Shown here one piece after another: positions 4,789 to 36,288 of a stretch of DNA of 64,000 bases (positions are counted from its first letter, which is position 1; each line of letters opens with the position of its first letter). Origin of the DNA: Rheinheimera sp. (GTDB lineage: Bacteria; Pseudomonadota; Gammaproteobacteria; Enterobacterales; Alteromonadaceae); assembly GCF_030690345.1 (NCBI RefSeq), contig NZ_JAUYGV010000008.1, positions 684,433-748,432 on the forward strand, read 5' to 3'. A program made the position numbers and the translations under genes. Under the pieces are notes generated by a model. It was not told where the DNA came from and made no database searches. It saw only the letters and a list, made by a program, of their open reading frames with translations.

Positions 4789-4790
4789 CT

Positions 4791-6323
4791 ATGGCCGGCA
4801 TGCAAGAGCAACTGGACTTTATTGCCTATATTCAGCGTATGTTGGCTGAAGGCGACTTCAGTGCAACATACAAGTTTGCTCTGCTGCACGCTATTGCCGA
4901 TGTCTGCGTCGAGCATCCGCTGCAACAACCAGACAGTGAACTGGTGATTACATTGGATCAACTGGTGGATAAGTTGATCCTGCTGTACTGGCATCATGCG
5001 GTACCTTTTGCCCCCGCTGCCAATGGTGATGCCGCGCTGCTCAAGCAAAACTCAGGCAAGCAGTCCAAAGTTATCAGCGTGTTGTATCAGTGTCAGCAAA
5101 ACAATATCCGTAATATCCGCCAGTTAAAACTCAGCCAGTACTGGCCTGCTATTTATCGCGCAACGCTGGCGACATTGAAAGACGGCCCGTTATGGCGGCT
5201 GCAAATTTTGTCCAAGCAGGCGGAATGTTTTTTATATCCGCATAGCAACAGTAATAAGTTTATCAAGCTGAACCCCGGCATTGCCTATTCGTTCCGCCGC
5301 TTTTACGATCTGGTGGTGTATCTGGCAAAAAATGCCTGGCTGCAAAAAATTCAGAGTATTAAAGACAATCAGCAATTGTTGGGCTCACAAAGTCAGCTGC
5401 AGCAGTTTTTGTTTGGTGTAGACAGAAATGCGCTAAACAAAGCACGACCAGTACTTATCGAGATCCAGCGTGGGCTATGTTTTTACTGCCATAAACCGTT
5501 AAAAGACCAAAGCAGCGCCGACGTTGATCACTTTATTCCATTCGCCCGCTACTCTACCGATCTGGGCCATAACTTTGTTGCCGCTCACAGCAGTTGTAAT
5601 AACAGCAAGCGTGATTATCTGGCGGCGCAGGTACATCGCGATAACTGGCAGGAACAAAACCTGGTGCAACATGCAGCAGTGCTGAGTACAGAACTGGCGG
5701 CCTATTTTTTCTGCGATGCAGCGAAATCGCTGGCAGTCAGTGACTGGGCCTACGGCGTTGCGCAGGCCAATGGTGCCAAACTATGGCTGAACAAAGATGA
5801 ATTTGTCGTTGCCGGCGCTGCTCAGCTTGTCCAGACTAACCCCGAGACAATGCGCATTGCGCCAGTTGCCGCTAATGATGCGCCGGCAATAACAACTGCC
5901 GATGATAGTTTGCGCCTGTGCTACTTTCCCAATCTTAAAATTGCCTGTGGTCATTTTAAAACCGGCAATATCAGCGAGGCCGAACAATGGCCCGCCCCGG
6001 CTGGTTTTGGCAGCCTGAACCCTGCTAAACACTTTTTAGCCCGCGCCAGCGGCAACTCGATGAACGGTGGAAAAACCCCGATATTAGACGGCCAACTACT
6101 ATTGCTGGAGCTGATCAGCCCAACCAGCGCCGGTTCACTACAAAACTGTACCGTTGCCATAGAACGCCAGGATCAAAGTGGTGATAACCAATACCTGCTG
6201 CGTGATGTGAAAAAAATCGCCGACGGGCAGTATCTGCTGATCGCCAAAAACCCCGATTATCCGCCTCTGGCGGCCGATGAAACCATGCGAACTTTTGCCA
6301 GGCTAAAAGGTATAGTGGAATAA
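4791..6323 (+). CDS. HNH endonuclease domain protein with LexA/S24-like C-terminal domain
   Basis: HNH-type core CFYCHKPLKDQSSADVDHFIPFARYSTDLGHNFVAAHSSCNNSKRDY; C-terminus ARASGNSMNGGKTPILDGQLLLLELI...YLLRDVKKIADGQYLLIAKNPDYPP resembles the S24 Ser/Lys layout. Confidence 0.75.
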   Translation: MAGMQEQLDFIAYIQRMLAEGDFSATYKFALLHAIADVCVEHPLQQPDSELVITLDQLVDKLILLYWHHAVPFAPAANGDAALLKQNSGKQSKVISVLYQCQQNNIRNIRQLKLSQYWPAIYRATLATLKDGPLWRLQILSKQAECFLYPHSNSNKFIKLNPGIAYSFRRFYDLVVYLAKNAWLQKIQSIKDNQQLLGSQSQLQQFLFGVDRNALNKARPVLIEIQRGLCFYCHKPLKDQSSADVDHFIPFARYSTDLGHNFVAAHSSCNNSKRDYLAAQVHRDNWQEQNLVQHAAVLSTELAAYFFCDAAKSLAVSDWAYGVAQANGAKLWLNKDEFVVAGAAQLVQTNPETMRIAPVAANDAPAITTADDSLRLCYFPNLKIACGHFKTGNISEAEQWPAPAGFGSLNPAKHFLARASGNSMNGGKTPILDGQLLLLELISPTSAGSLQNCTVAIERQDQSGDNQYLLRDVKKIADGQYLLIAKNPDYPPLAADETMRTFARLKGIVE

Positions 6324-20617: not shown

Positions 20618-22414
20618 TTAGTTATGGCTACTGCTGCTTTTGGCTGCGGTGGCAATAAAGCGATCCATTTCCGCCTGCAGAATTTCCAGTGGCAGCGCAC
20701 CGTTGGCTAATAACGCATCATGAAAAGCCCTGATGTCGAAGGCGCTGCCCAATGCCTGCTCTGCTTTGGCGCGTAACTGCCGGATAGTAATTTCACCCAT
20801 TTTGTACGACAGCGCCTGGCCGGGCCAGGAGATATAGCGATCTACCTCGGCCCGCACATTGGCTGCTGATAACGAGGTGTTGCCGGATAGAAAATCCAGC
20901 GCCTGCTGGCGGCTCCAGCCCTGAGAATGAATGCCGGTGTCGATCACCAGGCGGCAGGCGCGCCACATTTCATAGCTGAGGCGGCCAAATTGCTGATAAG
21001 CGTTTTCGTATACACCCATTTCTACCCCCAACCGTTCGGCGTACAAACCCCAACCTTCGCCATAGGCGCTTAAATACAAATTACGCCGGAACTGCGGCAC
21101 GTTTTCCAGCTCTTGTGACAAAGCGCTTTGTAAGTGATGGCCCGGCACCGATTCGTGCAGGGTTAAGGCGACCAGTTCATACAGCGGGCGCTGATCCAAG
21201 GCGTCGGTGTTAAGCCAATAGGCGCCGCCACGGCTGCCGCCAATGGCCGCCGGGTTATAAGATGCTGTAGTGTAGTTCGGCGCTATCTCGGCCGGCACCG
21301 GCACCACGCCGTAAGGCAGGCGTGGCAGCTTGCCGAAAAACTGCGGCAGGCGGTAGTCGATGCGCTTGGCAATGTACGACGCTTCTTTTAATAACTCGCG
21401 CGGCGTCGTGGCATAAAACTGCGGATCAGTGCGTAAAAAAGTGGTGAAGCCGGTAAAGCTGCCGCTAAACCCGGTTTGTTTAATCAAGGCATCCATTTCA
21501 GCGCGGATGCGTTTTACTTCCGCCAGCCCGGTGTTGTGGATATCAGCCGGGTCCAGATCTGCGGTAACGTAAGTGTTAATAGTATGCCGGTAGTAGGCTT
21601 TGCCGTTGGGTAATTGCTCTGCCGCTAAGCTGTCGGTGGCGGCCTGCATATAATCACCTTCAAGAAAATCCGCTAAACGCGCAAACGCCGGCAGCGCCAC
21701 CTGTGCAATAGCCTGTTTTGCCGCGCGTTGTAACTGCTGTTGTTCGGTTTGCGAAAAGGCCGCCGGCAGGTTTTTAAACGGCTCGTATAAGCTGCTTTGC
21801 AGCGGGTCGCTGTACACCTGCGCCCGCACCGTGGGTGCTATGCCCTGCACGACAATTTTTGGCAGCACAAAGCCGTCTTTAATACCTGTGCGCATATTAT
21901 TGATGTTTTCGTCAAAGTAGCGGCCAAAATCTTTGATGCGACTGATATAGTCTTGATAATCAGCCACTTTGGTCATAGTGAGGCCACTGCTGGCATCTAA
22001 CGCCAGGCTCCAGAAACTGTAAAAGGTATTAGCCGGTATACGATCGAGAAACAGTTGATTCGCCTGAATCGAATTGCGCAGCACCCAGCCGAGTAACTGA
22101 TGATTAACCCGGTCGGCATCGGTTAGTTGCTCTGGCGCAATAGCCTCCAGATGCTGCAGTAGCTGTTGTTCACTGGCAAGACGACGGGCGCGATCTGCCG
22201 GCGTGACACCCGGCAAGCGATCATTGTAACCGGCCAGCCCCATGCGGCCGGCGGTAACCGGGTCTTCCTGCAGGCTGTATTGCCAATGATCGTCGATCAC
22301 TTGTTGCAGTTGCTCAGTCGCCGTGGCGGCTAAAATTGCAGGGGCAATAGCCAATAAGGCCAGGCTAAACAAAGCATGCGTGAATAACGCGGTAAGTGTA
22401 CGGGACCTGAGCAC
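20618..22414 (-). CDS. DUF885 family protein (putative peptidase)
   Basis: Signal peptide; LTLHESVPGHHLQSALSQE and GEGWGLYAERLG, typical of DUF885. Confidence 0.88.
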   Translation of the reverse strand: MLRSRTLTALFTHALFSLALLAIAPAILAATATEQLQQVIDDHWQYSLQEDPVTAGRMGLAGYNDRLPGVTPADRARRLASEQQLLQHLEAIAPEQLTDADRVNHQLLGWVLRNSIQANQLFLDRIPANTFYSFWSLALDASSGLTMTKVADYQDYISRIKDFGRYFDENINNMRTGIKDGFVLPKIVVQGIAPTVRAQVYSDPLQSSLYEPFKNLPAAFSQTEQQQLQRAAKQAIAQVALPAFARLADFLEGDYMQAATDSLAAEQLPNGKAYYRHTINTYVTADLDPADIHNTGLAEVKRIRAEMDALIKQTGFSGSFTGFTTFLRTDPQFYATTPRELLKEASYIAKRIDYRLPQFFGKLPRLPYGVVPVPAEIAPNYTTASYNPAAIGGSRGGAYWLNTDALDQRPLYELVALTLHESVPGHHLQSALSQELENVPQFRRNLYLSAYGEGWGLYAERLGVEMGVYENAYQQFGRLSYEMWRACRLVIDTGIHSQGWSRQQALDFLSGNTSLSAANVRAEVDRYISWPGQALSYKMGEITIRQLRAKAEQALGSAFDIRAFHDALLANGALPLEILQAEMDRFIATAAKSSSSHN

Positions 22415-22690
22415 GGGTGTTCTCCAGACTAATCAAAGGGCTGCGTTTTATCGCTGTACCTTAGCATGCCAGCGCTGAGAGCAGGCAATTTTCTAACCCA
22501 TGCTGTAAACGGTTTGGCGCATTCGGCGTGGGTGGCAGATCAAACCATCAAACCGCCGTACCGCAGAGGGAGTGATTTCATGGCGCGATAAATACAGAGC
22601 AAATGCCGAGCGCTCTTATGCTCTGGGCAGTCTGAGAAATATCATTAGTTCTGTGAGAAAAAAACTGGCCCAAACAGGCCAGCTGCATAA

Positions 22691-22936
22691 TTAAGAAGTG
22701 ACTTTTGGTGCTGCTTTTTTACTTTCATGCTTGTGAGCAGCTACAGGGTGCTTAAACTCAGCATCATAGTAAGCAACGCCGTTATGATAGTGATAGCCGG
22801 TGCATAAGCCTTTATCTTTAGAGGCTTGGCTGCAATTATGACCACCGTTAGAGTCCGTTCTGCCACTATGTGCGTTTACGGAAATGCTCAGCACCGCCGC
22901 AACAGCAAGCAACATGGTAACTTTTTTCATGTTCAT
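22691..22936 (-). CDS. YHYH domain-containing secreted small protein
   Basis: Signal peptide; HSGRTDSNGGHNCSQASKDKGLCTGYHYHN. Confidence 0.8.
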   Translation of the reverse strand: MNMKKVTMLLAVAAVLSISVNAHSGRTDSNGGHNCSQASKDKGLCTGYHYHNGVAYYDAEFKHPVAAHKHESKKAAPKVTS

Positions 22937-23092
22937 TCCTTAAATCATTATTTTAATTATAAAACTTTGGGAGATTGCTCAAAGCCTAACCAAGCTATAT
23001 AAGGTTTCCCTTTATTGCAAACAATTAAGTTGCCGCGGCAATATACCATCTACAAAACCATACAGCTGCGCTAACGTTAGTAGACAGCCACA

Positions 23093-23536
23093 TCAAATCT
23101 TGGCAAATGCCTGTGAAAAGTGCTTTTGATGTTTGTGAAACCGCTGTCCACCGGCTGCATTTAACCGTATCTGATTACAGCTGAAAGGCTTTATTATGTA
23201 ACCCCAATTTCCCTTCTGCGAAAAATAGATGACATAATCGATATTCGTGTCAGTATTTTTCCACTGGTTCTTTACCAGAACGGAATCATCAGTAGTCTCA
23301 AGCGACTTTATCTGAACCCGATAGAATACCTGACCATCTGAAATGACTAGATCGGTTTTGCGCCCATGATCCAAAGCGGGCACAAGCACTTCCCAGCCGT
23401 CATTCATAAAGAGGCTGGCTGCATATTGTTCAAATGAATGGCTTTGGTAATGACGATGTTGTTCTGAAGCTAAAACAGAGGTTTTAAGTGGCATAGTAAA
23501 TCCAAAAATTAATGCCGCTACGTGTTTAATGGCCAC
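23093..23536 (-). CDS. PD-(D/E)XK endonuclease-like protein (group I intron-associated type)
   Basis: FEQYAASLFMNDGWEVLVPALDHGRKTDLVISDGQVFYRVQIKSLE; start may be internal (MPLKTSVLASE...). Confidence 0.65.
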   Translation of the reverse strand: MAIKHVAALIFGFTMPLKTSVLASEQHRHYQSHSFEQYAASLFMNDGWEVLVPALDHGRKTDLVISDGQVFYRVQIKSLETTDDSVLVKNQWKNTDTNIDYVIYFSQKGNWGYIIKPFSCNQIRLNAAGGQRFHKHQKHFSQAFAKI

Positions 23537-24062
23537 ATCGCTAACGACAGAGATAACCTGTGGTTAATCTCTTAATAATTTAAGAAGCACTATACCGCTT
23601 ATGCGTGTATCGAGTAGTAACGGAGGCCAGTCCCAAATTTCCAAGCTCTGCTCGTACTTTCTGCTAATACTACTTTCAGCCCCTCTGGGGCGTGTTTCCA
23701 GTTCGGTTGTAAACTTAAACCAGACACTGACGTTCGTCAATACAGCCAAGCTAAAAGGCATTTGCCACCTTGGCTGGGCATAACCCCCCGCCTGCAGCGG
23801 TGGCGGCTGGAAATCAGCCATAGCGCTTTTCGCTTTTTCAGGCATAAACAAGAAGAGTCATTTATGTGCTCAAACCATTACCACCTATGCCATTTGCATG
23901 ATGTTTGTGCAGGTAACATAGCTCTCCAGCACTTTTGACTTCACTCCAAACACCTACCCATTAGGTAATTATCTAATCTTTATCATTAAAACAGCGTTGT
24001 TCCCATTTTAACTTCATCGTATGTTATGTATCGCATTTCTCTTTTCAGTACGCAGGCAGTAT

Positions 24063-24920
24063 ATGGATATAGCATTTTGTACCATTGACGGTAAAAAATG
24101 GGTAGCTCAGGACTTTTTTGATTTAGGCGAAGCTGTTTACACCTCTCTAAGGCGTAATCTAAAGTGCCCTTCTTGTGAGGGTGATGCTTGGTTTAGAAAG
24201 GCAAGCTATGGCAATAAAGTTCCGCATTTTTGTGCTCATCATCTGGAAGGGTGCGAGTATTCCACAACCTACGAACAAATTGGTGAAGGTGATGGCGGAA
24301 GTGAATTTCCTGCCGCAAATCCCGACAGCGGAATCATTCTGGATTTAGGTTTAGAAAAAGACTATTCAATTGACGTAAAGCCTCAAGATCAAAAAGATAT
24401 AGATCCACAAGGGCAGCATCGTGTAGCAACCAAAATCGAAAATGGTGGAGGAAAAGATTTTCCGGCGCACCTGACATTAAAAAGCCTGCTATATAAACTT
24501 GTTCGCTCTGACAAACTCTACTTTTCCGATTCGAAAGTAATAATCCCGAATAGTCCAGTAAAAGGTTTGCCAGAAACGGCCAAAGACCTGTTTGTAAATT
24601 TCAAAAACATTAATGAAAACCTGAAAGATAAAAACCGAATTTTTTGGGGTTTCATTAGTGATGCAGGCTATACCACTGATGGTAAGCTATGGCTTAACGC
24701 AGGTAGCCGAAATGATGGGCTCAGCGTATCAATAAACCCTGAAATTGCAGACGAGTTTAGACGATATTTCAAAGTGGAAGGCTCTTTAGATAATCTTGCT
24801 GGATGCCACGTTTTGGTTATAGGGAATTGCTATTTTGCAGCATCCGGTAAGCCTGTTATATGGTGCGGTCAATTAGACTATATTGTCCTGCGAAGGTACA
24901 AATCTGATCTAGCTCATTGA
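24063..24920 (+). CDS. CoiA-like zinc-ribbon protein upstream of SIR2-HerA
   Basis: LKCPSCEGDAWFRKASYGNKVPHFCAHHLEGCEYS; start at 24063 (MDIAFCTIDG) preferred. Confidence 0.6.
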   Translation: MDIAFCTIDGKKWVAQDFFDLGEAVYTSLRRNLKCPSCEGDAWFRKASYGNKVPHFCAHHLEGCEYSTTYEQIGEGDGGSEFPAANPDSGIILDLGLEKDYSIDVKPQDQKDIDPQGQHRVATKIENGGGKDFPAHLTLKSLLYKLVRSDKLYFSDSKVIIPNSPVKGLPETAKDLFVNFKNINENLKDKNRIFWGFISDAGYTTDGKLWLNAGSRNDGLSVSINPEIADEFRRYFKVEGSLDNLAGCHVLVIGNCYFAASGKPVIWCGQLDYIVLRRYKSDLAH

Positions 24921-24973
24921 GTTAAATAATAATAAATTCGGATTTGATAGAACTTAATTAATGGGAATTAACA

Positions 24974-26188
24974 ATGGTCGATACTGTCCACAATCCAGAC
25001 CAATATATGTACGATTTAAAGCATATATTAACTAGTGGTAAAAAGAAGATTGGTATTCTAATCGGAGCAGGCGCTCCTGTTAGCATCAATGTTGCTACTG
25101 ATGGTACTTGGAAATCATTAATTCCAGACATCGCAGGACTAACAGAAATTGTTGTAGCCAATCTTAACAAGACAGAGCAGTCAGTTTACGCAAACATTAA
25201 GAACGATGTCGGCAGCAATAATATCGAGTTGATTTTAAGTCGGATCAGATCTCTTTCCGAAGTCATAGGTAACACAAAAATTCATGGTTTTGATGCCACT
25301 GGATTTGAAGGTTTATCAAAAAAAATATGTAGCGAAATAAAAAATGTCGTAAGCAAGCAATTGCCTGATGGAGAGAACCCCTTTTCAAATCTTATTTCAT
25401 GGATAAATGGCATTAACAGGGAACACGCGGTCGAGGTTTTCACAACCAATTACGACTTACTGCTTGAAGAGGCGCTAGAGAGAACAAGAACTCCTTATTT
25501 TGATGGCTTTTCAGGTTCAAGAATAGCGTTTTTCGACCCATCTACCATTTCTACAAACAACTTACCTGCTAGATGGGTTAGGCTTTGGAAACTACATGGT
25601 TCTATAAATTGGTCAAAGAATAGCAATGGCGAGATTACTCGCTCGGCTGGCAGCGATGATGGAACTATGGTTTACCCTTCACATATTAAATATGATCAGA
25701 CTCAGGCCGCCCCTTTTTCAGCACTTTTTGAACGTTTGAAGAATTTCTTGTTAGAACCTGACAGTTTATTGCTAACTGCAGGCTTTTCTTTTGCAGATGC
25801 TCATATAACAAACAAATTGGACGAATGCCTTGCGGCTAATGGCTCGTCCGCTTTAATTGCTTTCCAATATAAAAATCTAGACGAAGAAACGCCAGCGCTT
25901 AAAATTGCGTCAAGAAGGCCGAATATGAGTGTTTACTGTAAAAATGGAGCAACTATTAATGGCGTATCTGCACCATGGAAGCTTGGTGAACCTCCAAGTA
26001 AAAACTGGCATGCCATTCGCGGCGAGTACTGGCACAATGAAAGCTTTTTACTCGGTGACTTTCTAAAATTCACTAAATTCCTTGCGGGGTCAAGAGGGGG
26101 AAAATCAGTTGCAATTGTTGAGTTGGTAAATGCTGTAGCCGAGGCTCTTGCGGAAAAAGAGCACGAAGGGAATAAAGATGACGCTTGA
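24974..26188 (+). CDS. SIR2 family NAD-binding protein (antiphage SIR2-HerA type)
   Basis: GILIGAGAPVSINVATDG, VFTTNYDLLLEEAL, LWKLHGSINW; overlaps HerA. Confidence 0.88.
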   Translation: MVDTVHNPDQYMYDLKHILTSGKKKIGILIGAGAPVSINVATDGTWKSLIPDIAGLTEIVVANLNKTEQSVYANIKNDVGSNNIELILSRIRSLSEVIGNTKIHGFDATGFEGLSKKICSEIKNVVSKQLPDGENPFSNLISWINGINREHAVEVFTTNYDLLLEEALERTRTPYFDGFSGSRIAFFDPSTISTNNLPARWVRLWKLHGSINWSKNSNGEITRSAGSDDGTMVYPSHIKYDQTQAAPFSALFERLKNFLLEPDSLLLTAGFSFADAHITNKLDECLAANGSSALIAFQYKNLDEETPALKIASRRPNMSVYCKNGATINGVSAPWKLGEPPSKNWHAIRGEYWHNESFLLGDFLKFTKFLAGSRGGKSVAIVELVNAVAEALAEKEHEGNKDDA

Positions 26189-27962
26189 ACCAACATATTT
26201 AGGAAAAGTGACTTCAGTTTCAGGTGCTTCAGTAAGTATTGAAGTAACTCCACAACTAAAATCAGGGCTACTTATAATCGAAGGCAGGACTCATAGAGTT
26301 GGACAAGTAGGAAGCTTCATAAGAATACCTCAGGGCTATAATGATCTATATGGTGTTATATCAGAAACATCTGAATCTCAATCAAACGGGGATTTAGATA
26401 CAAGAATTCTAAAAGCTGAATTAGTTGGCGAAGTTATAGGTTCAGACTTCGAGCGAGGTATAGGGCAATACCCGAGCATCTCAGATGAAGTTCATTTAGT
26501 GACTGAAAATGATTTAAAAAAAATATACGGTAACGACACGCACGGACAGATTACCGTAGGAAGACTTTCAAGCTCTGACAGTATAAAAGTAAGTATTGAT
26601 TTAGACGACTTAGTTAATAAACACTCTGCAATACTTGGTTCAACTGGTGCCGGTAAGTCGACAAGTGTCGCTAGCTTACTTCGTTCCATCGTAACAAATC
26701 ACCAAGACAATGTATTAATGCCCTCAGCCAGAATAGTTTTATTTGACATACATGGCGAATATGCAGCAGCTCTCAAAGATATTTCTGAAGTCTTTTCTAT
26801 CACTCCAACAGCTGACGAAAAAAACTTCCATATCCCTTTTTGGTGTGTTTCTCCTGACAGCTTAATAGAGTTTTTATGCGGCTCGAATGAACCGCTGCGA
26901 AATAAATTCAATGAGCTTATCCTTGAAGATAAGCGGATATATGCTAGAGACAATCAAGATTTACAACTTGATGAGCACAAAATCACGTCCAATACTCCAC
27001 TTCCATTTCGCTTAAAGAAAATTTGGTATGATTTGGTTTTTGAAGACAATGTAAATTGGAACGATAAAGAAAAAACTGCAGACCCCGCGTATAAAGATAA
27101 CGAAAAAGGCGACCCAGATAAACTTATTGCACCCAAATTTATACCTCCTGGTGCAGCTTCAAACCCGCCCCACAAAGGAGGCCCAAAAGCATGGAGCAAA
27201 CCCCTCGATTTAATGAAGTCTAGGCTATTAGACAATCAATACTCATTTCTCTTAGAACCCGGAGGTTGGAGTCCAGACCTTAAAAACTCTATTGAGAAAG
27301 ATATTGATCACCTAATTTCAGAGTGGATAGGAAGTAATAAGCCGATAACGATTTTTGATTTGTCGGGAATGCCAACAGCTCGCTTAGAACTGCTTCTTGG
27401 CTCAGTACTAGATATTCTGTTCGAAGCGGCTATTTGGAGCAGAGGTCTCGAAAAGGGCTTCAAAAGCACTCCCGTCTTACTAGTTTTGGAAGAGGCACAT
27501 CGCTACTTGTCTTCAGAAAACTCTGGTTTAGCTAAAAAAATGGTCAGGCGTATTGCCAAAGAAGGTCGCAAATTTGGTGTAGGTTCAATGCTAATAAGTC
27601 AAAGACCATCTGAAATAGATGAAACAATACTCTCTCAATGCGGCACTATATTTTCCCTCCGAATTACAAATACAACAGACAGAAATCGAGTTAAAGCAGC
27701 AATGTCTGATGGCTTAGCCGGTATTGTAGATTCTTTGCCTGTTCTTCGAACAGGCGAAGCTATCGTAACCGGAGAGGCAGCAAAACTTCCGATGAGATTT
27801 AAGTTTCGCCTTCCTAAAGATGGGCAGTTCCCTGACAGTCAAGACCCTCAGGTGAGCCAAAATTGGGCCCGCAAATATGAAGAATCCGATTTCAAAGATT
27901 TTATAAATTGTTGGCGACAACAAGACGCCAAAACTAAAAAAAAGGAGAGAGATGATGAATAG
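26178..27962 (+). CDS. HerA-type DUF87 ATPase/helicase
   Basis: Walker A LGSTGAGKSTSVASLL; Walker B VLLVLEEAHRYL; SQRPSEIDETILSQCGTIFSLRITNTTDR. Start 26178 (MTLEPTYLG). Confidence 0.9.
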   Translation: MTLEPTYLGKVTSVSGASVSIEVTPQLKSGLLIIEGRTHRVGQVGSFIRIPQGYNDLYGVISETSESQSNGDLDTRILKAELVGEVIGSDFERGIGQYPSISDEVHLVTENDLKKIYGNDTHGQITVGRLSSSDSIKVSIDLDDLVNKHSAILGSTGAGKSTSVASLLRSIVTNHQDNVLMPSARIVLFDIHGEYAAALKDISEVFSITPTADEKNFHIPFWCVSPDSLIEFLCGSNEPLRNKFNELILEDKRIYARDNQDLQLDEHKITSNTPLPFRLKKIWYDLVFEDNVNWNDKEKTADPAYKDNEKGDPDKLIAPKFIPPGAASNPPHKGGPKAWSKPLDLMKSRLLDNQYSFLLEPGGWSPDLKNSIEKDIDHLISEWIGSNKPITIFDLSGMPTARLELLLGSVLDILFEAAIWSRGLEKGFKSTPVLLVLEEAHRYLSSENSGLAKKMVRRIAKEGRKFGVGSMLISQRPSEIDETILSQCGTIFSLRITNTTDRNRVKAAMSDGLAGIVDSLPVLRTGEAIVTGEAAKLPMRFKFRLPKDGQFPDSQDPQVSQNWARKYEESDFKDFINCWRQQDAKTKKKERDDE

Positions 27963-28161
27963 GGAACCAGTAACATCAACAAATATTAGCTCAATAGGAT
28001 ATGACCAAGATGCGAATATTTTAGAAGTTGAGTTTAATTCCGGAGCAGTATACCAATACTTTGATGTCCCAGAGTACGTTTGGAGGGAGCTTATGGACGC
28101 CACATCACATGGCTCTTTTCTTGCTCAAAACATTAAAGGTGTATACAGCTATTCGCGGTAA
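27955..28161 (+). CDS. KTSC domain protein
   Basis: NREPVTSTNISSIGYDQDANILEVEFNSGAVYQYFDVPEYVWRELMDATSHGSFLAQNIKGVYSYSR; overlaps the HerA 3' end. Confidence 0.82.
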   Translation: MNREPVTSTNISSIGYDQDANILEVEFNSGAVYQYFDVPEYVWRELMDATSHGSFLAQNIKGVYSYSR

Positions 28162-28269
28162 ATCAAAAATTGCATTCTGAACTGCTACACAGGCGCTACA
28201 CAAAAAAATTTAGGCATAAAAAAGGCCTCACTTTTCAGCTAAGAGATTAATTTATATAGCGAAACCGAT

Positions 28270-28348
28270 AGGATTACTCGGGCTATCCTGCCCTCGCCCT
28301 GCGGGCCAGCGGAGCTGTTCCAAATCGTTCCCGACGATTTGGTCGAAC
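28270..28348. repeat. 79-bp structured repeat, copy 1
   Basis: 78/79 identical to copy 2 at 28428. Confidence 0.9.
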
Positions 28349-28382
28349 GCCCGTTCTCATCGGGCAGAGTGCCAAAAACACA

Positions 28383-28405
28383 AAAACCACCCTAAAGGTG
28401 GTTTT
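28383..28405 (-). terminator. Terminator hairpin (duplicated unit)
   Basis: AAAACCACC-CTAAA-GGTGGTTTT. Confidence 0.7.
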
Positions 28406-28414
28406 GATGTTTTG

Positions 28415-28427
28415 TGGTGCACCCGCC
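28415..28427 (-). pseudogene. tRNA 3' acceptor remnant (GGCGGGTGCACCA)
   Basis: Identical to the 3' end of tRNA-Arg at 28573..28585, abutting the 79-bp repeat. Confidence 0.6.
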
Positions 28428-28506
28428 AGGATTACTCGGGCTATCCTGCCCTCGCCCTTCGGGCCAGCGGAGCTGTTCCAAATCGTTCCCGACGATTTGG
28501 TCGAAC
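28428..28506. repeat. 79-bp structured repeat, copy 2
   Basis: AGGATTACTCGGGCTATCCTGCCCTCGCCCTTCGGGCCAGCGGAGCTGTTCCAAATCGTTCCCGACGATTTGGTCGAAC. Confidence 0.9.
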
Positions 28507-28541
28507 CTAACGGTTCGCCTCCTACGGGGGCTATAAACGCA

Positions 28542-28564
28542 AAAACCGCCGAATTGGCGGTTTT
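28542..28564 (-). terminator. Rho-independent terminator of tRNA-Arg
   Basis: AAAACCGCC-GAATT-GGCGGTTTT followed by T-run on the minus strand. Confidence 0.75.
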
Positions 28565-28572
28565 GACGTTTA

Positions 28573-28649
<77 letters not shown>

Positions 28650-28817
28650 ACAATCTGCAATACTGCAGAAGCTGCGCATTATAGACAGCCTTGCTCTGTG
28701 TGTCTATCGCCTTACTGCCTGATTTTTCAGCACTCAGTTTCACTGCCCGTATTTACATTGTTGCAGCGTTAGCGCTAGAGTGAGGGCTGGCTAACTTTCC
28801 GGCATTCCCCCGCTACG

Positions 28818-30749
28818 ATGAATACAAAATTTTTGCTGTCTTTTGGCCACTGGCTACTGCTGCTAACCTTGCTGCTATTGGCGATGTACGCCACTGAAAC
28901 CATAGTGCAGCACGAGCAGCAACATGCACGCAGCCAGCAGTTACGCCATGAAATAGCCAGCGCCGGCCAGTTGCGGGCTTTGTTAGAGTCAGAGCTGAAT
29001 ATTCCGCTGTACCTTACCATTGGCCTTACCGCTTACGTGCAGGCCAACAATGGCGAAATTTCGCCGGCTGAAATCCATTTGCTGTTGCCGGAGCTGGTGC
29101 ATCAGGCGCGGCATATCCGCAATATCGGTGTCGCGCCCGGCAATACCTTACGCTATGTCTACCCGCTAAGCGGCAATGAGCAAGCCATTGGCCTGTATTA
29201 CCCCGACCTGCAAGAACAATGGCCCGACATTGCCGCCATTATTGCCCAGCGCGAAGCACGGCTGGTGGGCCCTATTGAACTGGTGCAGGGCGGCACCGCC
29301 TTTATTTACCGCCTGCCGGTGTACCTGAATGCCGACAGTTACTGGGGCATTATCAGTACCGTAGTTAATATCGACTCGGTTTGGCGCCTGCTGGAAAAGC
29401 AAACCACCGAGCAGGAAGTGCAGGTAGCTATTCGCAGCTTGTCGGCACAGGGCCGGGCCAGCACAGCGTTTTATGGTGACGACCGGCTGTTTTATGATGA
29501 CAGCCTGTTGTTGGGCATCAGTTTGCGCGGTGCGCTGTGGCAAATGGCCGTGCGCTCTTTGGCGCCACTGCCGGATCGCGCGCAGCAAATACGCATCGCC
29601 GCCTATGGCATAACAGCATTGCTGCTGTGTTTGCTGGGCTGGCTGTTAATTTCACGTCAGCATTTGCGCGACAGCGTAACAGAGCAACAGCGCAGCAAAC
29701 TCTATTTACGCAGCATGATGGATAACGTGGCCGATGCCATTATTACCACCGACCCGGACGGCATTATTGAGCAGGTAAACCTGTCGTGCTACCCGATGTT
29801 TGGCTATGCCACCTCCACCCTGCCGGGGCTGCATTGGTCGGTATTGCTGGCCGACCCGCAGCGGCTGGACGAGGTATACAGCGCTACCTCCAACGGCAAC
29901 GCCGAATACGAAACCGCCGGCCGGCGGCGTGACAACAGTACCTTTCCGATGGCAGTGCACCGCAGCCATATCCGGATGCTGCAGCAATCGCGCCAGCTAC
30001 TGGTATTAAGCGATTTATCTGAGCGGCGGCAAACCGAGCAGTTAAAGCAGCAGTTTATTTCTACCGTAAGCCATGAACTGCGCACGCCGCTTACCTCAGT
30101 TTCAGCGGCGTTGGGCCTGGCGGTGGCCGGCGCTTTAGGTGAGTTGACGGCGTCGCAACAGCGTATGCTGCAGCTGGCGCATACCAATTGTCAGCGCTTG
30201 AATGCGTTGGTGAGTGACTTACTGGATATTGAAAAAATTACCAGCGGCACTATGACGCTGGAGCTAAGCCTGGTGGCCCTGCGGCCGCTGGTGCAGCAAT
30301 GTATTGACGAAATGCTGCTGTTTAATAACAACCGTGTGATCACCCTGCACTGCGATACCAATCTGGCTAAGGTGAACGTTGAGGCCGAACCAAACCGGCT
30401 TAGCCAGGTGTTAATGCATTTGCTGTCTAACGCGGTAAAGTTTTCACCGACCGACCAGCCGGTACAAGTTAGTATCAGCATGGCAGGTAACCGGGTACGG
30501 GTAACGGTGCAGGATAGCGGCCAGGGTGTGGCTGCACAGTTTGTGCCGGGTTTATTCAGTCGCTTTAGCCGCGCCGACAACAGCGACAACCGCGAACATG
30601 GCGGTACCGGGCTGGGGTTAGCCATCAGCCGCAGCCTGATCACACTGATGAACGGCAGCATGGGCTATAAACCGGCACCGCAGCAAGGCAGCTGCTTTTA
30701 CTTTGAACTGCCGTTTATCGCCACCCTGCAACCACAAACGTTGCCCTAA
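28818..30749 (+). CDS. CHASE-PAS sensor histidine kinase
   Basis: Periplasmic CHASE-like region; FISTVSHELRTPLTSVSAALGL; HATPase motif GGTGLGLAISRSL. Confidence 0.88.
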   Translation: MNTKFLLSFGHWLLLLTLLLLAMYATETIVQHEQQHARSQQLRHEIASAGQLRALLESELNIPLYLTIGLTAYVQANNGEISPAEIHLLLPELVHQARHIRNIGVAPGNTLRYVYPLSGNEQAIGLYYPDLQEQWPDIAAIIAQREARLVGPIELVQGGTAFIYRLPVYLNADSYWGIISTVVNIDSVWRLLEKQTTEQEVQVAIRSLSAQGRASTAFYGDDRLFYDDSLLLGISLRGALWQMAVRSLAPLPDRAQQIRIAAYGITALLLCLLGWLLISRQHLRDSVTEQQRSKLYLRSMMDNVADAIITTDPDGIIEQVNLSCYPMFGYATSTLPGLHWSVLLADPQRLDEVYSATSNGNAEYETAGRRRDNSTFPMAVHRSHIRMLQQSRQLLVLSDLSERRQTEQLKQQFISTVSHELRTPLTSVSAALGLAVAGALGELTASQQRMLQLAHTNCQRLNALVSDLLDIEKITSGTMTLELSLVALRPLVQQCIDEMLLFNNNRVITLHCDTNLAKVNVEAEPNRLSQVLMHLLSNAVKFSPTDQPVQVSISMAGNRVRVTVQDSGQGVAAQFVPGLFSRFSRADNSDNREHGGTGLGLAISRSLITLMNGSMGYKPAPQQGSCFYFELPFIATLQPQTLP

Positions 30750-30884
30750 GCCGGTTTTTATCTTAATTTGTTGGCATCTGGCTGCAAACGCGGGGCTTTG
30801 TCAGATTTTTTTGGCATACTCGGGTGGCCATGCGCCCAAGCGTAACTATTACAATAAGCTTTAACATCTTCCAGGGAGATATCC

Positions 30885-33053
30885 ATGCGTAAAACACTGA
30901 TTGCCACCACCGTTGGTGCCGTACTGGCGCTTAGCGCCTGTTCTGATAATACGGCTCCGGCTCAAACTAATACTCAACCAGGCTCTGCCGCGGTAACCGA
31001 AGTGACTTCTACTAACCCGTTATTCGTTAAAAGCATGCTGCAATACGAAGCGCCCAATTTCACTGAAATAAAAGACGAGCATTTCCTGCCGGCCTTTGAA
31101 GAAGGCATGAAGCAGCATATGGTTGAAGTACTGGCCATTGCCAATAACCCGGAGCCGGCCAGCTTCGACAACACCTTAGTCGCACTGGAAAAAAGCGGCG
31201 AGCTGCTTACCCGTGCGTCGCGTATTTTCTATAACCTGGCGGGCTCTAACTCTAACCCGGAGCGGCGTAAAATTCAGTCTGAACTGGCACCGAAAATGGC
31301 CGCACACTCAGACAACATTAACTTAAACCCGCAGTTATTCGCGCGGATTAAAAGCCTGTACAACCAGCGCAACGAGCTGCAACTGGACAGCGAGTCGGTA
31401 CGCTTAGCAGAAGTGTATTACGAGCGCTTTGTGCGGGCCGGGGCCGAGCTGACTGAAGAGCAAAAAACCGCGATTCGGGCGCTGAACGAAGAACACTCTA
31501 AACTGACCAACCAGTTCTCGCAGAACCTGCTGGCCGAAACGAAAAACATCGCCGTAGTGGTTGAGACCAAAGAAGAACTGGACGGTTTATCTGACTCGCA
31601 AATTACTGCCGCTGCCAATGCCGCTAAAGAAGCCGGCCATGAAGGCAAATACCTGTTAAGCATTACCAACACCACGCGCCAACCGGTGCTGGCTCAGCTG
31701 AGCAACCGCGAGCTGCGTAAGCGTGTATGGGAAGTGTCTGCCAACCGCGCGCAAAGCGGTGAAACCGACAACCGCCCACTGGTAGCCCGTTTGGCCCAGC
31801 TGCGTGCTGAACGCGCCAAACTGTTAGGCTACGACAACTGGGCCAGCTATGGCCTGGAAGCGCAAATGGCGAAAACTCCACAAGCCGTGTTTGATATGTT
31901 AGGCAGCATGGTGCCGGCAGTAGTGGCTAACACTAACCAGGAAGCCGCGGCCATTCAGCAGATGATTAAAGAGAAAGGCGGTGATTTTGAGCTGCAACCG
32001 TGGGACTGGGAATACTATGCCGAGTTTGTGCGCCAGGCGAAGTTTGACCTGGACGAAAACGAAGTTAAACAATACTTTGAGTTTAACCGCGTATTAAAAG
32101 ACGGCGTGTTCTTTACCTTTGAGCGCTTGTACGGCATTACCTTTAAGCCACGGCCGGATTTACCCACTTACCACCCGGATGTAGATGCCTATGAGCTGTT
32201 TGATGCCGACGGCACCAGCCTGGCCATTTTCTACGCCGATTACTTCGCCCGTGAAGGTAAGCGCGGCGGCGCCTGGATGAGCTCTTTTGTTGGCCAATCG
32301 CACTTAACCGGACAAAAACCGGTAGTGGTTAACGTAATGAACATTCCTAAAGCCCCGGAAGGCGAGCCGACGCTGGTAAGCTATGACCACGTAACCACTA
32401 TGTTCCACGAACTGGGCCATGGCTTACACGGCATGTTCTCTGACGTAAAATATCCAACATTGGCCGGTACCTCAGTATCGCGCGACTTTGTTGAGTTTCC
32501 GTCTACGTTCGAGGAAGACTGGGCCGCCCACCCGGAAGTGATCGCTAACTACGCCAAGCACTACAAAACCGGCGAAGCCATTCCCTCTGAGCTGCTGCAA
32601 AAAGTAATGAATTCACGCAGCTTTAACCAGGGCTTTGATACGCTGGAGTATTTGTCTGCCGCCTTGCTGGATATGGAATGGCATTCACTGTCTGCCGACG
32701 AGCCGTTGCAGGATGTTAACGCCTTTGAAGCCGCAGCGCTGAAAAAGCACGGTGTAGATTTAGCGGCGGTACCACCGCGTTATAAGTCGACCTTTTTCTC
32801 TCACTCTATGGGTGGCGGCTATTCTGCCGGTTACTACGCCTATATGTGGAGTGAAATTCTGGCGGCCGATGCTTTTGCCTTTGTACAGCAGCAAGGTGGG
32901 TTGAAGCTGGAAAACGGCCAGAACTACCGCAAAAACATTTTGTCTGTAGGTAACTCACGCCCGCCAATGGAGTCTTACAAAGCCTTCCGTGGCCAGGAGC
33001 CTACTACAGATGCGCTGTTAATCCGCCGCGGCCTGAAAACCAAAGTAGATTAA
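30885..33053 (+). CDS. M3 family metallopeptidase lipoprotein (Dcp-like)
   Basis: Lipobox LALSACSDN; FHELGHGLHGMFSD. Confidence 0.92.
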   Translation: MRKTLIATTVGAVLALSACSDNTAPAQTNTQPGSAAVTEVTSTNPLFVKSMLQYEAPNFTEIKDEHFLPAFEEGMKQHMVEVLAIANNPEPASFDNTLVALEKSGELLTRASRIFYNLAGSNSNPERRKIQSELAPKMAAHSDNINLNPQLFARIKSLYNQRNELQLDSESVRLAEVYYERFVRAGAELTEEQKTAIRALNEEHSKLTNQFSQNLLAETKNIAVVVETKEELDGLSDSQITAAANAAKEAGHEGKYLLSITNTTRQPVLAQLSNRELRKRVWEVSANRAQSGETDNRPLVARLAQLRAERAKLLGYDNWASYGLEAQMAKTPQAVFDMLGSMVPAVVANTNQEAAAIQQMIKEKGGDFELQPWDWEYYAEFVRQAKFDLDENEVKQYFEFNRVLKDGVFFTFERLYGITFKPRPDLPTYHPDVDAYELFDADGTSLAIFYADYFAREGKRGGAWMSSFVGQSHLTGQKPVVVNVMNIPKAPEGEPTLVSYDHVTTMFHELGHGLHGMFSDVKYPTLAGTSVSRDFVEFPSTFEEDWAAHPEVIANYAKHYKTGEAIPSELLQKVMNSRSFNQGFDTLEYLSAALLDMEWHSLSADEPLQDVNAFEAAALKKHGVDLAAVPPRYKSTFFSHSMGGGYSAGYYAYMWSEILAADAFAFVQQQGGLKLENGQNYRKNILSVGNSRPPMESYKAFRGQEPTTDALLIRRGLKTKVD

Positions 33054-33083
33054 TAACCACTTAGCCGCCTGCCGGTTATGCAT

Positions 33084-33116
33084 AAAAAAGCCCCGCTAAC
33101 TTAGCGGGGCTTTTTC
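33084..33116. terminator. Rho-independent terminator
   Basis: AAAAAAGCCCCGCTAACTTAGCGGGGCTTTTT. Confidence 0.85.
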
Positions 33117-33131
33117 TTGGTTGCCGCTTAA

Positions 33132-34478
33132 TTAACTGCCGGCTACCTGCATCTGGTTTATCAAGATCGAGCCGGTTAATACGCCGCCACGGCGATCAAC
33201 GTCGTTACCTACCGCCACTATGTTCATAAACATATCTTTTAAATTACCGGCAATGGTCACTTCAGACACCGGAAACTGAATTTCGCCGTGCTCTACCCAA
33301 AAACCGGCGGCGCCACGCGAGTAATCACCGGTTACGGTGTTAACGCCCTGGCCCATCAGTTCGGTGACCAGCAGGCCTTTGCCCATGCTGCGGCACAGTT
33401 GCAGTAAGTCTTCATCGCCGTGCTGTACCAGCCAGTTATGAATGCCGCCGGCATGGCCGGTACTGGCCATACCCAGCTTACGCGCCGAGTAACTGGTGGT
33501 TAGGTATGTTGTCAGTACGCCCTGCTCTATTACGGCTAAATCACGGGTTTTTACGCCTTCGCCGTCAAACGGGCTGGAGGCCAGCGCCTGCTTTAAATGC
33601 GGCTGCTCAACAATGCTGACGCCGGGCGCCATAATTTGTTGGCCAACCTTGTCCATTAAAAAGCTGGATTTACGGTAAATACTGCCGCCACTTATAGCCG
33701 AGACTAAATGGCCAAACAGGCTGCTGGCGATGTCGGCACGAAACAATACCGGCACTTTTTGCGTGGCAATTTTACGCGCATTAAGCCTGGCTACGGTTTC
33801 CAGTGCGGCTTCGCGGCCAATTTGTTTCGGGTCCAGCAGCTGGTTGTAGCGCCGTGCCACGGTAAAGCTGTAGTCGCGCTGCATATCATCGCCATCTTCG
33901 CCTATCACCACACAACTGAAGCTGTGGCGTGAGCTGGGGTAGCCGACTAACTGGCCATGGCTGTTGCCGTACACCTTTAAGCCCTGATGCGACGAGAACG
34001 ACGCGCCTTCCGAATTGGTAATACGTTTGTCGGTGGCAAAGGCGGCTTCTTCGGCGCCGGCACATAAGCGGATGGCTTCGTCGGTGCCGATGCTGTCGGG
34101 GTAAAACAAGTCCAGATCCGGTGGCGACATTTCCAGCCAGGCCGCTTCGGCCAAACCGGTATGCGGGTCTTCCGAGGTATAGCGGGCAATATCGGCCGCC
34201 GCTTCTACCGTGCGGCGCAGCGCATCGTGGCTTAAATCGGCAGTAGAGGCCGAGCCTTTGCGCTGGCCAAAGTACAAACTGATGCCCAGGCCACCATCCT
34301 GATTAAACTCTACCGTTTCCACCTCGCCGTGGCGGGTTTCCACGCTTAAGCCTTTGGTGCGGCTCATCGACGCTTCAGCGCTGCTGGCACCCAATTGCTT
34401 TGCATGGGCCAGCACTTCAGCTACGGCTTGTTTTACTTCGTCAATTTCCTGCCAAATAGTGCTTTGGGTTACTTGCAT
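33132..34478 (-). CDS. pmbA: Metalloprotease PmbA/TldE
   Basis: GLSVETRHGEVETVEFNQDGGLGISLYFGQRKGSAST...TGDYSRGAAGFWVEHGEIQFPVSEVTIAGNL. Confidence 0.93.
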   Translation of the reverse strand: MQVTQSTIWQEIDEVKQAVAEVLAHAKQLGASSAEASMSRTKGLSVETRHGEVETVEFNQDGGLGISLYFGQRKGSASTADLSHDALRRTVEAAADIARYTSEDPHTGLAEAAWLEMSPPDLDLFYPDSIGTDEAIRLCAGAEEAAFATDKRITNSEGASFSSHQGLKVYGNSHGQLVGYPSSRHSFSCVVIGEDGDDMQRDYSFTVARRYNQLLDPKQIGREAALETVARLNARKIATQKVPVLFRADIASSLFGHLVSAISGGSIYRKSSFLMDKVGQQIMAPGVSIVEQPHLKQALASSPFDGEGVKTRDLAVIEQGVLTTYLTTSYSARKLGMASTGHAGGIHNWLVQHGDEDLLQLCRSMGKGLLVTELMGQGVNTVTGDYSRGAAGFWVEHGEIQFPVSEVTIAGNLKDMFMNIVAVGNDVDRRGGVLTGSILINQMQVAGS

Positions 34479-34594
34479 AATGTCTGTTCAGCTAAATTAT
34501 TTGCCACAAGCTTATCATAGTCTGCTTATGCTGGCTGCTGCTGTGCATCACTATCATGTATACTTAGCGCATTATTGTTAAGAGTGAAGCAAGC

Positions 34595-35113
34595 ATGACA
34601 GATTTTATTAACGGCGATACCTGGGACGAAGAAGAAGGTAAGAGTAAGTCTCAGGTTAAGCGTGAAATGCACGAGCTGCAAAAACTGGGCGAAGAGCTGG
34701 TAGAGTTAAGCGCCGCATCACGCGCCCGGGTGCCGCTGGATGACGAATTAAAAGACGCGCTGCAATTGGCCGACAAGCTGAGCAATAAGCGCGAAGCGCT
34801 GCGCCGGCATATTCAGTTTATCGGCCGCTTAATGCGCACCCGTGATTTAGAGCCGATTGAGCAAGCTTTAGCGGTACTGCGTAATACCAACCAGGCGGCG
34901 ACACGGCAGTTTCATAAGGTAGAACAATGGCGCGATAAACTGTTGGCGAAAGACGACAGCCTGACCGACTTTATTGCCGCCTACCCGGAGGCCGATGTGC
35001 AGCAACTGCGCCAGCTGATCCGCAATGCCAAGAAAGAGCAGGAAAAACAACAGCCGCCCAAAGCCTACCGCGAGCTATTTCAGCTAATTAAACCTTTGAT
35101 TATTGAAGAATAG
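34595..35113 (+). CDS. darP: Ribosome-associated protein YjgA/DarP
   Basis: DDELKDALQLADKLSNKREALRRHIQFIGRLMR; next to pmbA. Confidence 0.9.
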   Translation: MTDFINGDTWDEEEGKSKSQVKREMHELQKLGEELVELSAASRARVPLDDELKDALQLADKLSNKREALRRHIQFIGRLMRTRDLEPIEQALAVLRNTNQAATRQFHKVEQWRDKLLAKDDSLTDFIAAYPEADVQQLRQLIRNAKKEQEKQQPPKAYRELFQLIKPLIIEE

Positions 35114-35129
35114 TTTATCGCAGATGCCA

Positions 35130-35287
35130 GCTACAAACTCCGTTGTGCTCGCCACAGCGAAATTCGGGGGCAATCCTGCCCCTCATCCGGCGGGCCAGCT
35201 ACGCTGACGAAATTCGTTCCCGACGAATTTCTTACCCGCCTTCGCTATACGCGAAAATGTCTGTGGCTGCGCTAACGGAGTTGTAGC
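35130..35287. repeat. Inverted-repeat-bounded intergenic element containing a diverged copy of the 79-bp structured repeat (about 35160-35233)
   Basis: GCTACAAACTCCGTT ... AACGGAGTTGTAGC outer arms; inner GAAATTCGT-TCCCG-ACGAATTTC hairpin. Confidence 0.7.
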
Positions 35288-35292
35288 CTGCC

Positions 35293-36288
35293 TTAGCAGA
35301 CCTTAGTTAGCCAGCCGTGTTTATCTTCGGCCTTGCCCCACTGAATATCATTCAGTGCCTGGCGCAGGGCATTAGTAGTGGCGCCGGCAACACCGGAACC
35401 TACCTGATATTCCTTACCGCCATGAATTAAGGTACCCACCGGGGTTAATACAGCAGCAGTGCCGGACAATGCCGCTTCTGTACCCGGCTTAGCGGCGCGC
35501 TCCAGCAGTTCGTCTACTGTAAGCTCGCGCTCAGATACGGTCATACCGCGATCGCGGGCCAGGGTTAAAATAGAATCCCGCGTAATGCCATGCAGGAACG
35601 AGCTGTCCAGCGCCTTGGTGATAATTTCATTGCCGTCGATCAGCAAAAAGTTGGCTGCACCGGTTTCCTGCACATCGCCATTGGGGCAAAACAGTACCTG
35701 GTCGGCCTGCACGCTGGCGCGGGCTTTCATGATCGGCTGCAGCGCACTGGCGTAGTTACCGCCGCTTTTTACCATGCCCATATGCGGCGCACAGCGGGCG
35801 TTGTCTTCCAGCAGTAAGCGCAGTGGTTTGGCACCACCGGCAAAATAGTCGCCTACCGGCGACAGTAACACATACAGCATAGACTCCAGGCTTGGCGCGG
35901 CAGCTTTGCCGATTGAGGCTTCAGTGCCGATATGGGTTGGCCGGATATACATAGAGCCCGGTGGCACCGGTACGTCTGCCGCATAGCGGCCGACAATATC
36001 CAGAATCATCTTGCTTAACATGGCTTTATCAAAGCCCGGCAGCGCCAGCAATTGGCTGCTTTGCGCTAAGCGGGCAACGTTTTTCTCCATGCGGAAGGTA
36101 TAAATACCACCATCGGCATGGCGAAACGCCTTTAAGCCTTCAAAACAGGTGCTGGAGTAATGCAGCACATGCGCGCCCGGATGCAGGCTGATGCTGTCGG
36201 TGGCGACAATTTCCGGCGTGCTCCAGCTGTTGTTGTTAAAACGGGAGATGATCATCTCCGGAGTAAATACGGTGCCAAATGCTGCCAT
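35293..36288 (-). CDS. ilvE: Branched-chain amino acid aminotransferase
   Basis: HYSSTCFEGLKAFRHADGGIYTFRMEKNVAR...QETGAANFLLI. Confidence 0.9.
   Translation of the reverse strand: MAAFGTVFTPEMIISRFNNNSWSTPEIVATDSISLHPGAHVLHYSSTCFEGLKAFRHADGGIYTFRMEKNVARLAQSSQLLALPGFDKAMLSKMILDIVGRYAADVPVPPGSMYIRPTHIGTEASIGKAAAPSLESMLYVLLSPVGDYFAGGAKPLRLLLEDNARCAPHMGMVKSGGNYASALQPIMKARASVQADQVLFCPNGDVQETGAANFLLIDGNEIITKALDSSFLHGITRDSILTLARDRGMTVSERELTVDELLERAAKPGTEAALSGTAAVLTPVGTLIHGGKEYQVGSGVAGATTNALRQALNDIQWGKAEDKHGWLTKVC

What the first reader, a model, noticed from the sequence alone, without database searches (positions are those of the whole stretch)
28270..35287. Dispersed structured repeat family with compensatory stem changes and invariant TCCCG loop
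Seen: copies at 28270-28348 and 28428-28506 (78/79 identical) and a diverged copy at about 35160-35233. All share the order: hairpin GGGC-TATCCT-GCCC (35 kb: GGGGC-AATCCT-GCCCC), hairpin CAGC-GGA-GCTG (CAGC-TAC-GCTG), hairpin CCAAATCGT-TCCCG-ACGATTTGG (GAAATTCGT-TCCCG-ACGAATTTC). The last stem differs at three base pairs, all compensated. Inference: the fold, not primary sequence, is selected; either a REP-like mobile element or a structured RNA. No known family recognised.
Basis: partly seen in the sequence, partly recalled or inferred. Interest (0 to 1): 0.75.

Follow-up and report, generated by a model that had tools for sequence, protein, structure and literature searches.

The report
tRNA-linked repeats carrying CsrA-type hairpins
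The repeated folded sequences are members of a 1978-described but functionally unexplained bacterial family that sits just behind tRNA genes; their two conserved hairpin loops look like docking sites for the global regulator CsrA, so these RNAs probably soak up or tune CsrA in step with tRNA production.

Summary
The repeats are real. The biologically meaningful strand is the MINUS strand, so the "TCCCG" loop is CGGGA. Copies A and B lie behind tRNA-Arg(CCG) (28573-28649, minus). B ends in a copy of that tRNA's 3' end, and intrinsic-terminator-like hairpins separate tRNA, B and A. This is the tRNA-linked-repeat (TLR) / Rfam RtT arrangement. A covariance model from Rheinheimera copies, window A/B included, recovers E. 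coli rttR (45 bits) and the rrn-linked TLR RrB (61 bits); Rfam's RtT model misses window and RrB at its cut-off.

Copy C is a dispersed cousin just behind an aminotransferase gene. Its 147-nt subfamily (D1, 18 copies) is 97.8% paired, with 20 pairs changed on both sides.

Across Gammaproteobacteria most elements carry two hairpins with GGA loops: NNGGA, and CA(N)GGA(N)G, the CsrA/RsmE consensus. E. coli RrB has the same two hairpins and binds CsrA in vitro through GGA motifs (PMC8144298). That paper called RrA/B/F unique among E. coli TLRs in affinity for CsrA; here paired GGA hairpins are the rule outside enterics.

Most likely: CsrA-binding RNAs made by read-through from stable-RNA operons. 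Membership is shown; CsrA binding here is inferred; function is untested. RAYT/REP is not supported.

The parts
28573..28649 (-). tRNA-Arg (anticodon CCG), host gene of the tRNA-linked repeats
   Evidence: ARAGORN, Rfam tRNA 66 bits
28533..28572 (-). T1: intrinsic-terminator-like hairpin between the tRNA and copy B
   Evidence: fold -22.8 kcal/mol, AAAACCGCC...GGCGGTTTTT
28415..28541 (-). Copy B: complete tRNA-linked repeat (RtT-type) element
   Evidence: R2 114.3 bits (B is in the seed of R2); RF00391 full length 21 bits; R1 41.8 bits
28415..28432 (-). 3' end of B: copy of the 3' end of tRNA-Arg (16 of 18 nt, GGCGGGTGCACCA exact)
   Evidence: sequence
28478..28500 (-). B hairpin 1, loop CGGGA at 28487-28491 (GGA site 1)
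28438..28451 (-). B hairpin 4, loop AGGATA at 28442-28447 (GGA site 2, CAGGATAG)
28377..28414 (-). T2: second terminator-like hairpin, between B and A
   Evidence: fold -19.0 kcal/mol
28257..28381 (-). Copy A: second tandem repeat, 3' tRNA-like end degenerate (12 of 25 nt match the tRNA, against 18 of 25 for B)
   Evidence: R2 109.4 bits (in the seed)
28320..28342 (-). A hairpin 1, loop CGGGA at 28329-28333
28280..28293 (-). A hairpin 4, loop AGGATA
35135..35282 (-). Copy C: dispersed (D1) element, 11 nt from the aminotransferase ORF end (ORF 35293-36288, minus), i.e. in its 3' UTR
   Evidence: R1 150.7 bits (in the seed); R2 47 bits, E 1.4e-12 (not in the seed); context
35209..35231 (-). C hairpin 1, loop CGGGA at 35218-35222
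35167..35182 (-). C hairpin 4, loop AGGATT at 35172-35177 (CAGGATTG)

Best explanation
The repeats are RNA-coding elements of the tRNA-linked-repeat (TLR/RtT) family. A and B are transcribed as the tail of the tRNA-Arg(CCG) transcript by read-through of terminator-like hairpins, and the copied tRNA 3' end is probably used by tRNA-processing enzymes. Each element presents two GGA-loop hairpins (hp1 NNGGA, hp4 CA(N)GGA(N)G) that bind a CsrA dimer and so titrate or tune CsrA in proportion to stable-RNA synthesis. Copy C is a homologous dispersed module in the 3' UTR of the class-IV aminotransferase mRNA, with the same two CsrA-type hairpins. Shown: homology, structure, tRNA linkage, GGA conservation. 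Inferred: transcription, CsrA binding here, processing, physiological effect.
For: Membership: R2 finds E. coli rttR (45.5 bits) and RrB (60.8 bits, E 5.8e-19), neither in its seed; RF00391 hits are over cut-off in 4 congeners and 2 other genomes of the order, and almost all hit loci with enough flank lie behind tRNA genes. Of 265 model matches, 155 have a tRNA or tmRNA upstream on the same strand within 600 bp, and 1 has one on the opposite strand. The 16-nt 3' tail matches the adjacent tRNA at 13.2 of 16 against 8.7 for other isotypes; in the class-wide sample usually 18-19 of 19. Range: 83 of 185 Gammaproteobacteria genomes at E<=1e-5. CsrA: 1.39 GGA-loop hairpins per element against 0.15 in shuffles; at least two in 81 of 137 against 0.9% of shuffles; class sample 35 of 43 with two. 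The two sites are kept or lost together (exactly one in 17 of 103 loci, 38 expected if independent). E. coli RrB has the same hairpins, caaatccgcCGGGAgcggatttg and gtggcgggcAGGACgcccgccat, and binds CsrA in EMSA, lost when three GGA motifs are changed (PMC8144298). The genome encodes CsrA.
Against: No expression or binding data for this organism. Enteric tRNA TLRs such as rttR and the Tyr-type congeners lack GGA loops, so CsrA binding cannot be the only role of the family. RrA/B/F deletion or overexpression had only modest effects in E. coli, and CsrB competes far better. Hairpin 1 has C or another base where the CsrA consensus has A. A CsrB-like candidate exists in the genome (43 bits, below cut-off), so the elements need not be the main sponge. 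R2 was built from GGA-bearing copies and the genome contigs pattern required GGA, which inflates GGA frequency in some samples; related sequences are not independent.
Confidence: 0.74

Rival explanations
1. The elements are tRNA-linked repeats whose job is RNA processing and termination: the tRNA-like 3' end and stable hairpins guide 3' maturation of the tRNA or protect transcripts, and GGA loops are incidental.
For: 3' ends copy the adjacent tRNA; terminator-like hairpins flank the repeats; enteric tRNA TLRs keep the architecture without GGA.
Against: Does not explain why GGA is the commonest loop trinucleotide (187 of 463 loops), why both GGA loops are kept or lost together, or why the motif persists in dispersed copies without tRNA (35 of 49 with two).
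Confidence: 0.14
2. A mobile or selfish hairpin repeat (REP/MITE-like), spread by a transposase, with structure needed for transposition.
For: 2-36 copies per Rheinheimera genome at E<=0.01; dispersed copies in varied intergenic sites; tandem duplications.
Against: No intact Y1/RAYT gene in this genome, none at all in G007 and G013 which carry 11 and 19 copies. Fixed orientation behind tRNA genes (155 against 1) and GGA conservation are not explained. Sequences diverge widely while the fold is kept.
Confidence: 0.06
3. Integrase-related: tandem copies of the tRNA 3' end act as attachment sites or decoys next to the SIR2-HerA island.
For: Repeated GGTGCACCCGCC tRNA 3' end; a SIR2_2 + HerA pair lies directly beyond A.
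Against: No integrase was found among the ORFs scanned between the island and the tRNA (only selected ORFs from 20618 to 36288 were scanned). The same arrangement occurs behind many tRNAs. It cannot account for C.
Confidence: 0.04

Closest known systems
tRNA-linked repeats (TLR) / Rfam RF00391 RtT (E. coli rttR in the tyrT operon)
   Same: Same four-hairpin order, GGTTCGAC and AATCC motifs, position behind a tRNA, 3' end copying that tRNA, tandem units; reciprocal covariance-model hits
   Different: Window copies score 21 bits with RF00391 (cut-off 45); hairpins 1 and 4 carry GGA loops that rttR lacks; terminator-like hairpin between tRNA and element
RrA/RrB/RrF, CsrA- and Hfq-interacting TLR sRNAs of E. 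coli rrn operons (PMC8144298)
   Same: Same hairpin 1 loop CGGGA, hairpin 4 loop AGGAN, hairpins 2 and 3; between two terminators, made by read-through; R2 60.8 bits
   Different: Linked to 5S rRNA, not tRNA; 3' end copies 5S
CsrB/CsrC, RsmX/Y/Z CsrA-sequestering RNAs
   Same: GGA in hairpin loops; CAGGANG and CANGGANG motifs
   Different: Own promoters, many sites (CsrB about 18, as quoted in PMC8144298); here two sites per element, attached to tRNA transcripts or 3' UTRs; no sequence homology shown
TwoAYGGAY (RF01731)
   Same: Two GGA-loop hairpins proposed to bind CsrA (PMC4333381)
   Different: Assigned to Clostridia in that paper; no Rfam match to the window at gathering threshold
REP/BIME with RAYT
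   Same: Dispersed intergenic hairpins
   Different: No cognate RAYT; much larger conserved fold; tRNA linkage

Membership tests
TLR / RtT (for A and B) | Lies directly downstream of a tRNA or rRNA gene, same strand | tested here: met
   tRNA-Arg(CCG) 28573-28649 minus, B begins 32 nt beyond it; family-wide 155 of 265 against 1 on the opposite strand
TLR / RtT (for A and B) | 3' 18-19 nt identical to the 3' end of the upstream stable RNA (PMC8144298) | tested here: met
   B: 16 of 18 nt, last 13 exact, so near-identical rather than identical; A: degenerate, 12 of 25
TLR / RtT (for A and B) | Shared sequence and secondary structure with E. coli rttR | tested here: met
   R2 finds rttR at 45.5 bits and RrB at 60.8 bits, neither in its seed; same hairpin order
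Rfam RF00391 as curated | Score at or above 45 bits | tested here: not met
   21 bits for B; congeners reach 61.6 bits
TLR / RtT (for C) | Linked to a tRNA or rRNA gene | tested here: not met
   Between a class-IV aminotransferase gene and darP; only one tRNA in the window. C is a homologue of the family, not a tRNA-linked member
CsrA-binding RNA | GGA in apical loops of stable hairpins | tested here: met
   Two per copy in A, B, C; enrichment over shuffles
CsrA-binding RNA | Physical binding of CsrA | not testable with these tools
   Known only for the homologue RrB (PMC8144298)
REP/BIME | Cognate RAYT transposase in the genome | tested here: not met
   Only a 102-aa PF01797 fragment at 30.6 bits in own genome; zero in G007 and G013

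The most novel reading that the evidence does not exclude
The functionally orphan TLR/RtT family is, across Gammaproteobacteria, mainly a CsrA-titrating system built into tRNA (and tmRNA, rRNA) operons, so that free CsrA tracks stable-RNA synthesis; RrA/B/F of E. coli are not unique but retain the common form, while enteric tRNA TLRs have lost it. In Rheinheimera the module has also spread as 3'-UTR cassettes.
Probability: 0.4. Interest if true: 0.8.

Novelty: new variant of a known kind. Interest (0 to 1): 0.62.

Why it matters
TLRs have been known since 1978 and, per PMC8144298, have no known function. That paper saw CsrA affinity only in three rrn-linked E. coli copies. Here a single covariance model joins rttR, RrB and elements found in 81 of 177 sampled gammaproteobacterial genera, and paired CsrA-type hairpins are the usual state. 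This makes a concrete, easily tested prediction that links tRNA synthesis to a global post-transcriptional regulator, and it would let Rfam's narrow RtT family be redefined.

Tried and rejected
REP/RAYT: Y1 transposase search negative for an intact gene. Integrase att duplication: first suspected from the repeated tRNA 3' end, dropped because the same arrangement recurs behind many tRNAs. attC sites: considered from the outer palindromes, not pursued because the conserved interior is a multibranched RNA-like fold. Rfam at gathering threshold gives only tRNA in the window; sub-threshold miRNA and other matches were ignored as chance. A first automatic classification of hairpins 1 and 4 was crude and partly biased by the GGA pattern; replaced. 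Literature searches for tyrT/RtT gave mostly noise; the useful papers came from CsrA searches. Empty-site comparison for dispersed copies was considered and not done.

Full report
1. Observation. The three copies exist as described. A and B are 78/79 identical and C is diverged, with three compensated pairs in the longest stem. The window is G000:C10:684433-748432 of a 4.35-Mb genome. The genus of the window itself is inferred from this, because its own record is unnamed.

2. Strand and context. The single tRNA of the window, tRNA-Arg(CCG), lies at 28573-28649 on the minus strand. Reading from it: terminator-like hairpin T1, copy B, a copy of the tRNA's own 3' end (GGCGGGTGCACCA), terminator-like hairpin T2, copy A. 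Copy C is on the same strand, 11 nt from the end of a class-IV aminotransferase ORF and facing darP. On this strand the reported TCCCG loop is CGGGA and the TATCCT loop is AGGATA.

3. Family. Rfam at curated thresholds sees only the tRNA. With a permissive threshold, B matches RF00391 RtT over its full length at 21 bits. RF00391 is above cut-off in four congeners and two other genomes of the order, and most of the loci examined there sit behind tRNA-Tyr, Arg, Glu or Ala genes (a few loci have no ARAGORN tRNA in the stretch held). A model R2 built from 14 Rheinheimera elements (A5, window A and B among them) finds C at 47 bits, E. coli rttR at 45.5 bits and E. coli RrB at 60.8 bits; none of these is in its seed. 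A model R1 built from dispersed copies finds B at 41.8, A at 37.5 and RrB at 27.1 bits. Tandem and dispersed elements are therefore one homologous family. R2 matches 59 of 149 genomes of the order at E<=0.001 and 83 of 185 genomes sampled across the class at E<=1e-5.

4. Structure. Eighteen dispersed copies: 44 pairs, 97.8% of cells paired, 20 pairs with changes on both sides against a shuffle mean of 9.7; slid controls 31-39% paired. The tRNA-linked form has an acceptor-like closing helix, a GAAC/GTTC hairpin and hairpins 1-4. The closing helix changes with the host tRNA: 5' and 3' segments of one element pair better than 5' segments swapped from elements at other isotypes (mean -22.4 against -18.7 kcal/mol; 87 of 114).

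5. Linkage. 155 of 265 matches have a tRNA or tmRNA upstream on the same strand within 600 bp; 1 has one on the opposite strand. Host genes include Ser, Arg, Tyr, Glu, Gln, Lys, Asp, Val, Pro and Ala tRNAs and, in one case, tmRNA (L164). In the class-wide sample 40 of 43 elements are linked and most copy 18-19 of the last 19 nt of the tRNA. Part of the sample of 265 was chosen with a DNA pattern, which contains the GTTCGAC of the element.

6. GGA loops. In 137 elements selected by model only (A7+A8), hairpins with GGA loops average 1.39 per element against 0.15 in dinucleotide shuffles; two or more in 81 elements against 0.9% of shuffles. Hairpin 1 loops are mostly CGGGA, CTGGA, CAGGA and CCGGA, that is a free base followed by fixed GGA. 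Hairpin 4 loops read C-A-(N)-GGA-(N)-G, such as CAGGATG, CATGGATG, CAGGGAAG. This is the CsrA/RsmE consensus as I know it from the literature (SELEX and RsmE structures; own knowledge, not tested here). Both sites are kept or lost together more than independence predicts (17 of 103 loci with exactly one, 38 expected), as expected for a dimer that bridges two sites; shared ancestry inflates this figure. The seed of R2 carried GGA, so detection is biased towards it.

7. Experimental anchor. PMC8144298 reports that RrA/B/F, TLRs between two terminators of E. coli rrn operons, are made by read-through, bind CsrA in EMSA, and lose binding when three GGA motifs are changed. The sequence of RrB shows exactly the two hairpins found here. 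The paper states that TLRs have no known function, that the stringent-response claim for rtT was retracted, and that the other 19 E. coli TLRs score below 0.01 for CsrA, hence RrA/B/F appear unique. The comparative data here suggest the opposite for the family outside enterics.

8. Mechanism. Proposed: read-through of T1 yields tRNA-tailed RNA carrying B, then A; the tRNA-like 3' end allows maturation; the paired GGA hairpins hold a CsrA dimer; free CsrA falls as stable-RNA transcription rises. Dispersed copies such as C would attach the same CsrA site to mRNA 3' UTRs: 18 of 26 examined have a same-strand gene directly upstream, often within 11-65 nt (simple ORF calls). The genome has one CsrA gene and a CsrB-like candidate below cut-off. 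In several congeners csrA itself lies within about 1 kb of a tRNA-Ser/Arg operon that carries such repeats; the csrA-tRNA neighbourhood is a general gammaproteobacterial feature (own knowledge), so this is suggestive only.

9. Novelty. A and B are members of a known family; C is a homologue lacking the defining tRNA linkage. New here: unification of rttR, RrB and a class-wide set under one model; the paired CsrA-type hairpins as the usual state; and the dispersed, highly covarying subfamily. No paper found in the library describes this, but the library lacks most subscription journals.

Noticed in passing
window 24974-27962 (+): SIR2 (PADLOC SIR2 599 bits) and HerA (502 bits) genes side by side, a likely SIR2-HerA anti-phage defence pair, with an uncharacterised 299-aa ORF upstream and a KTSC-domain gene (27952-28161) downstream, directly next to the tRNA-Arg repeats.
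   Followed up: partly
L164:1001-1143 (-), genome G166: A tRNA-linked-repeat element with two GGA hairpins directly downstream of tmRNA rather than a tRNA.
   Followed up: partly
L280 (Lacimicrobium alkaliphilum), 3837-5111: Five tandem elements interleaved with tRNA-Glu and tRNA-Ala genes, each with a GGA hairpin 1.
   Followed up: partly
L008/L089/L092/L095 (own genome C2:438860, C8:144423, C8:466894): A further dispersed subtype (D3) with extra hairpins CATGGATG, CAGGGATG, CACGGATG and CCCAGGGATGGG, i.e. possibly four or five CsrA-type sites per element; structure not modelled.
   Followed up: partly
G000:C1:458487-458802: Sub-threshold CsrB match (43 bits), a candidate CsrB of this genome.
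   Followed up: no
G002, G003, G008, G011, G012, G015 csrA loci: csrA lies within about 1 kb of an RF00391/R2 element behind tRNA-Ser/tRNA-Arg in these congeners; own genome has the csrA - tRNA-Ser/Arg cluster (L223) without an R2 match.
   Followed up: partly
L223, own genome C1: ARAGORN calls a 'tmRNA' overlapping the tRNA-Ser/Arg genes, probably a false call.
   Followed up: no
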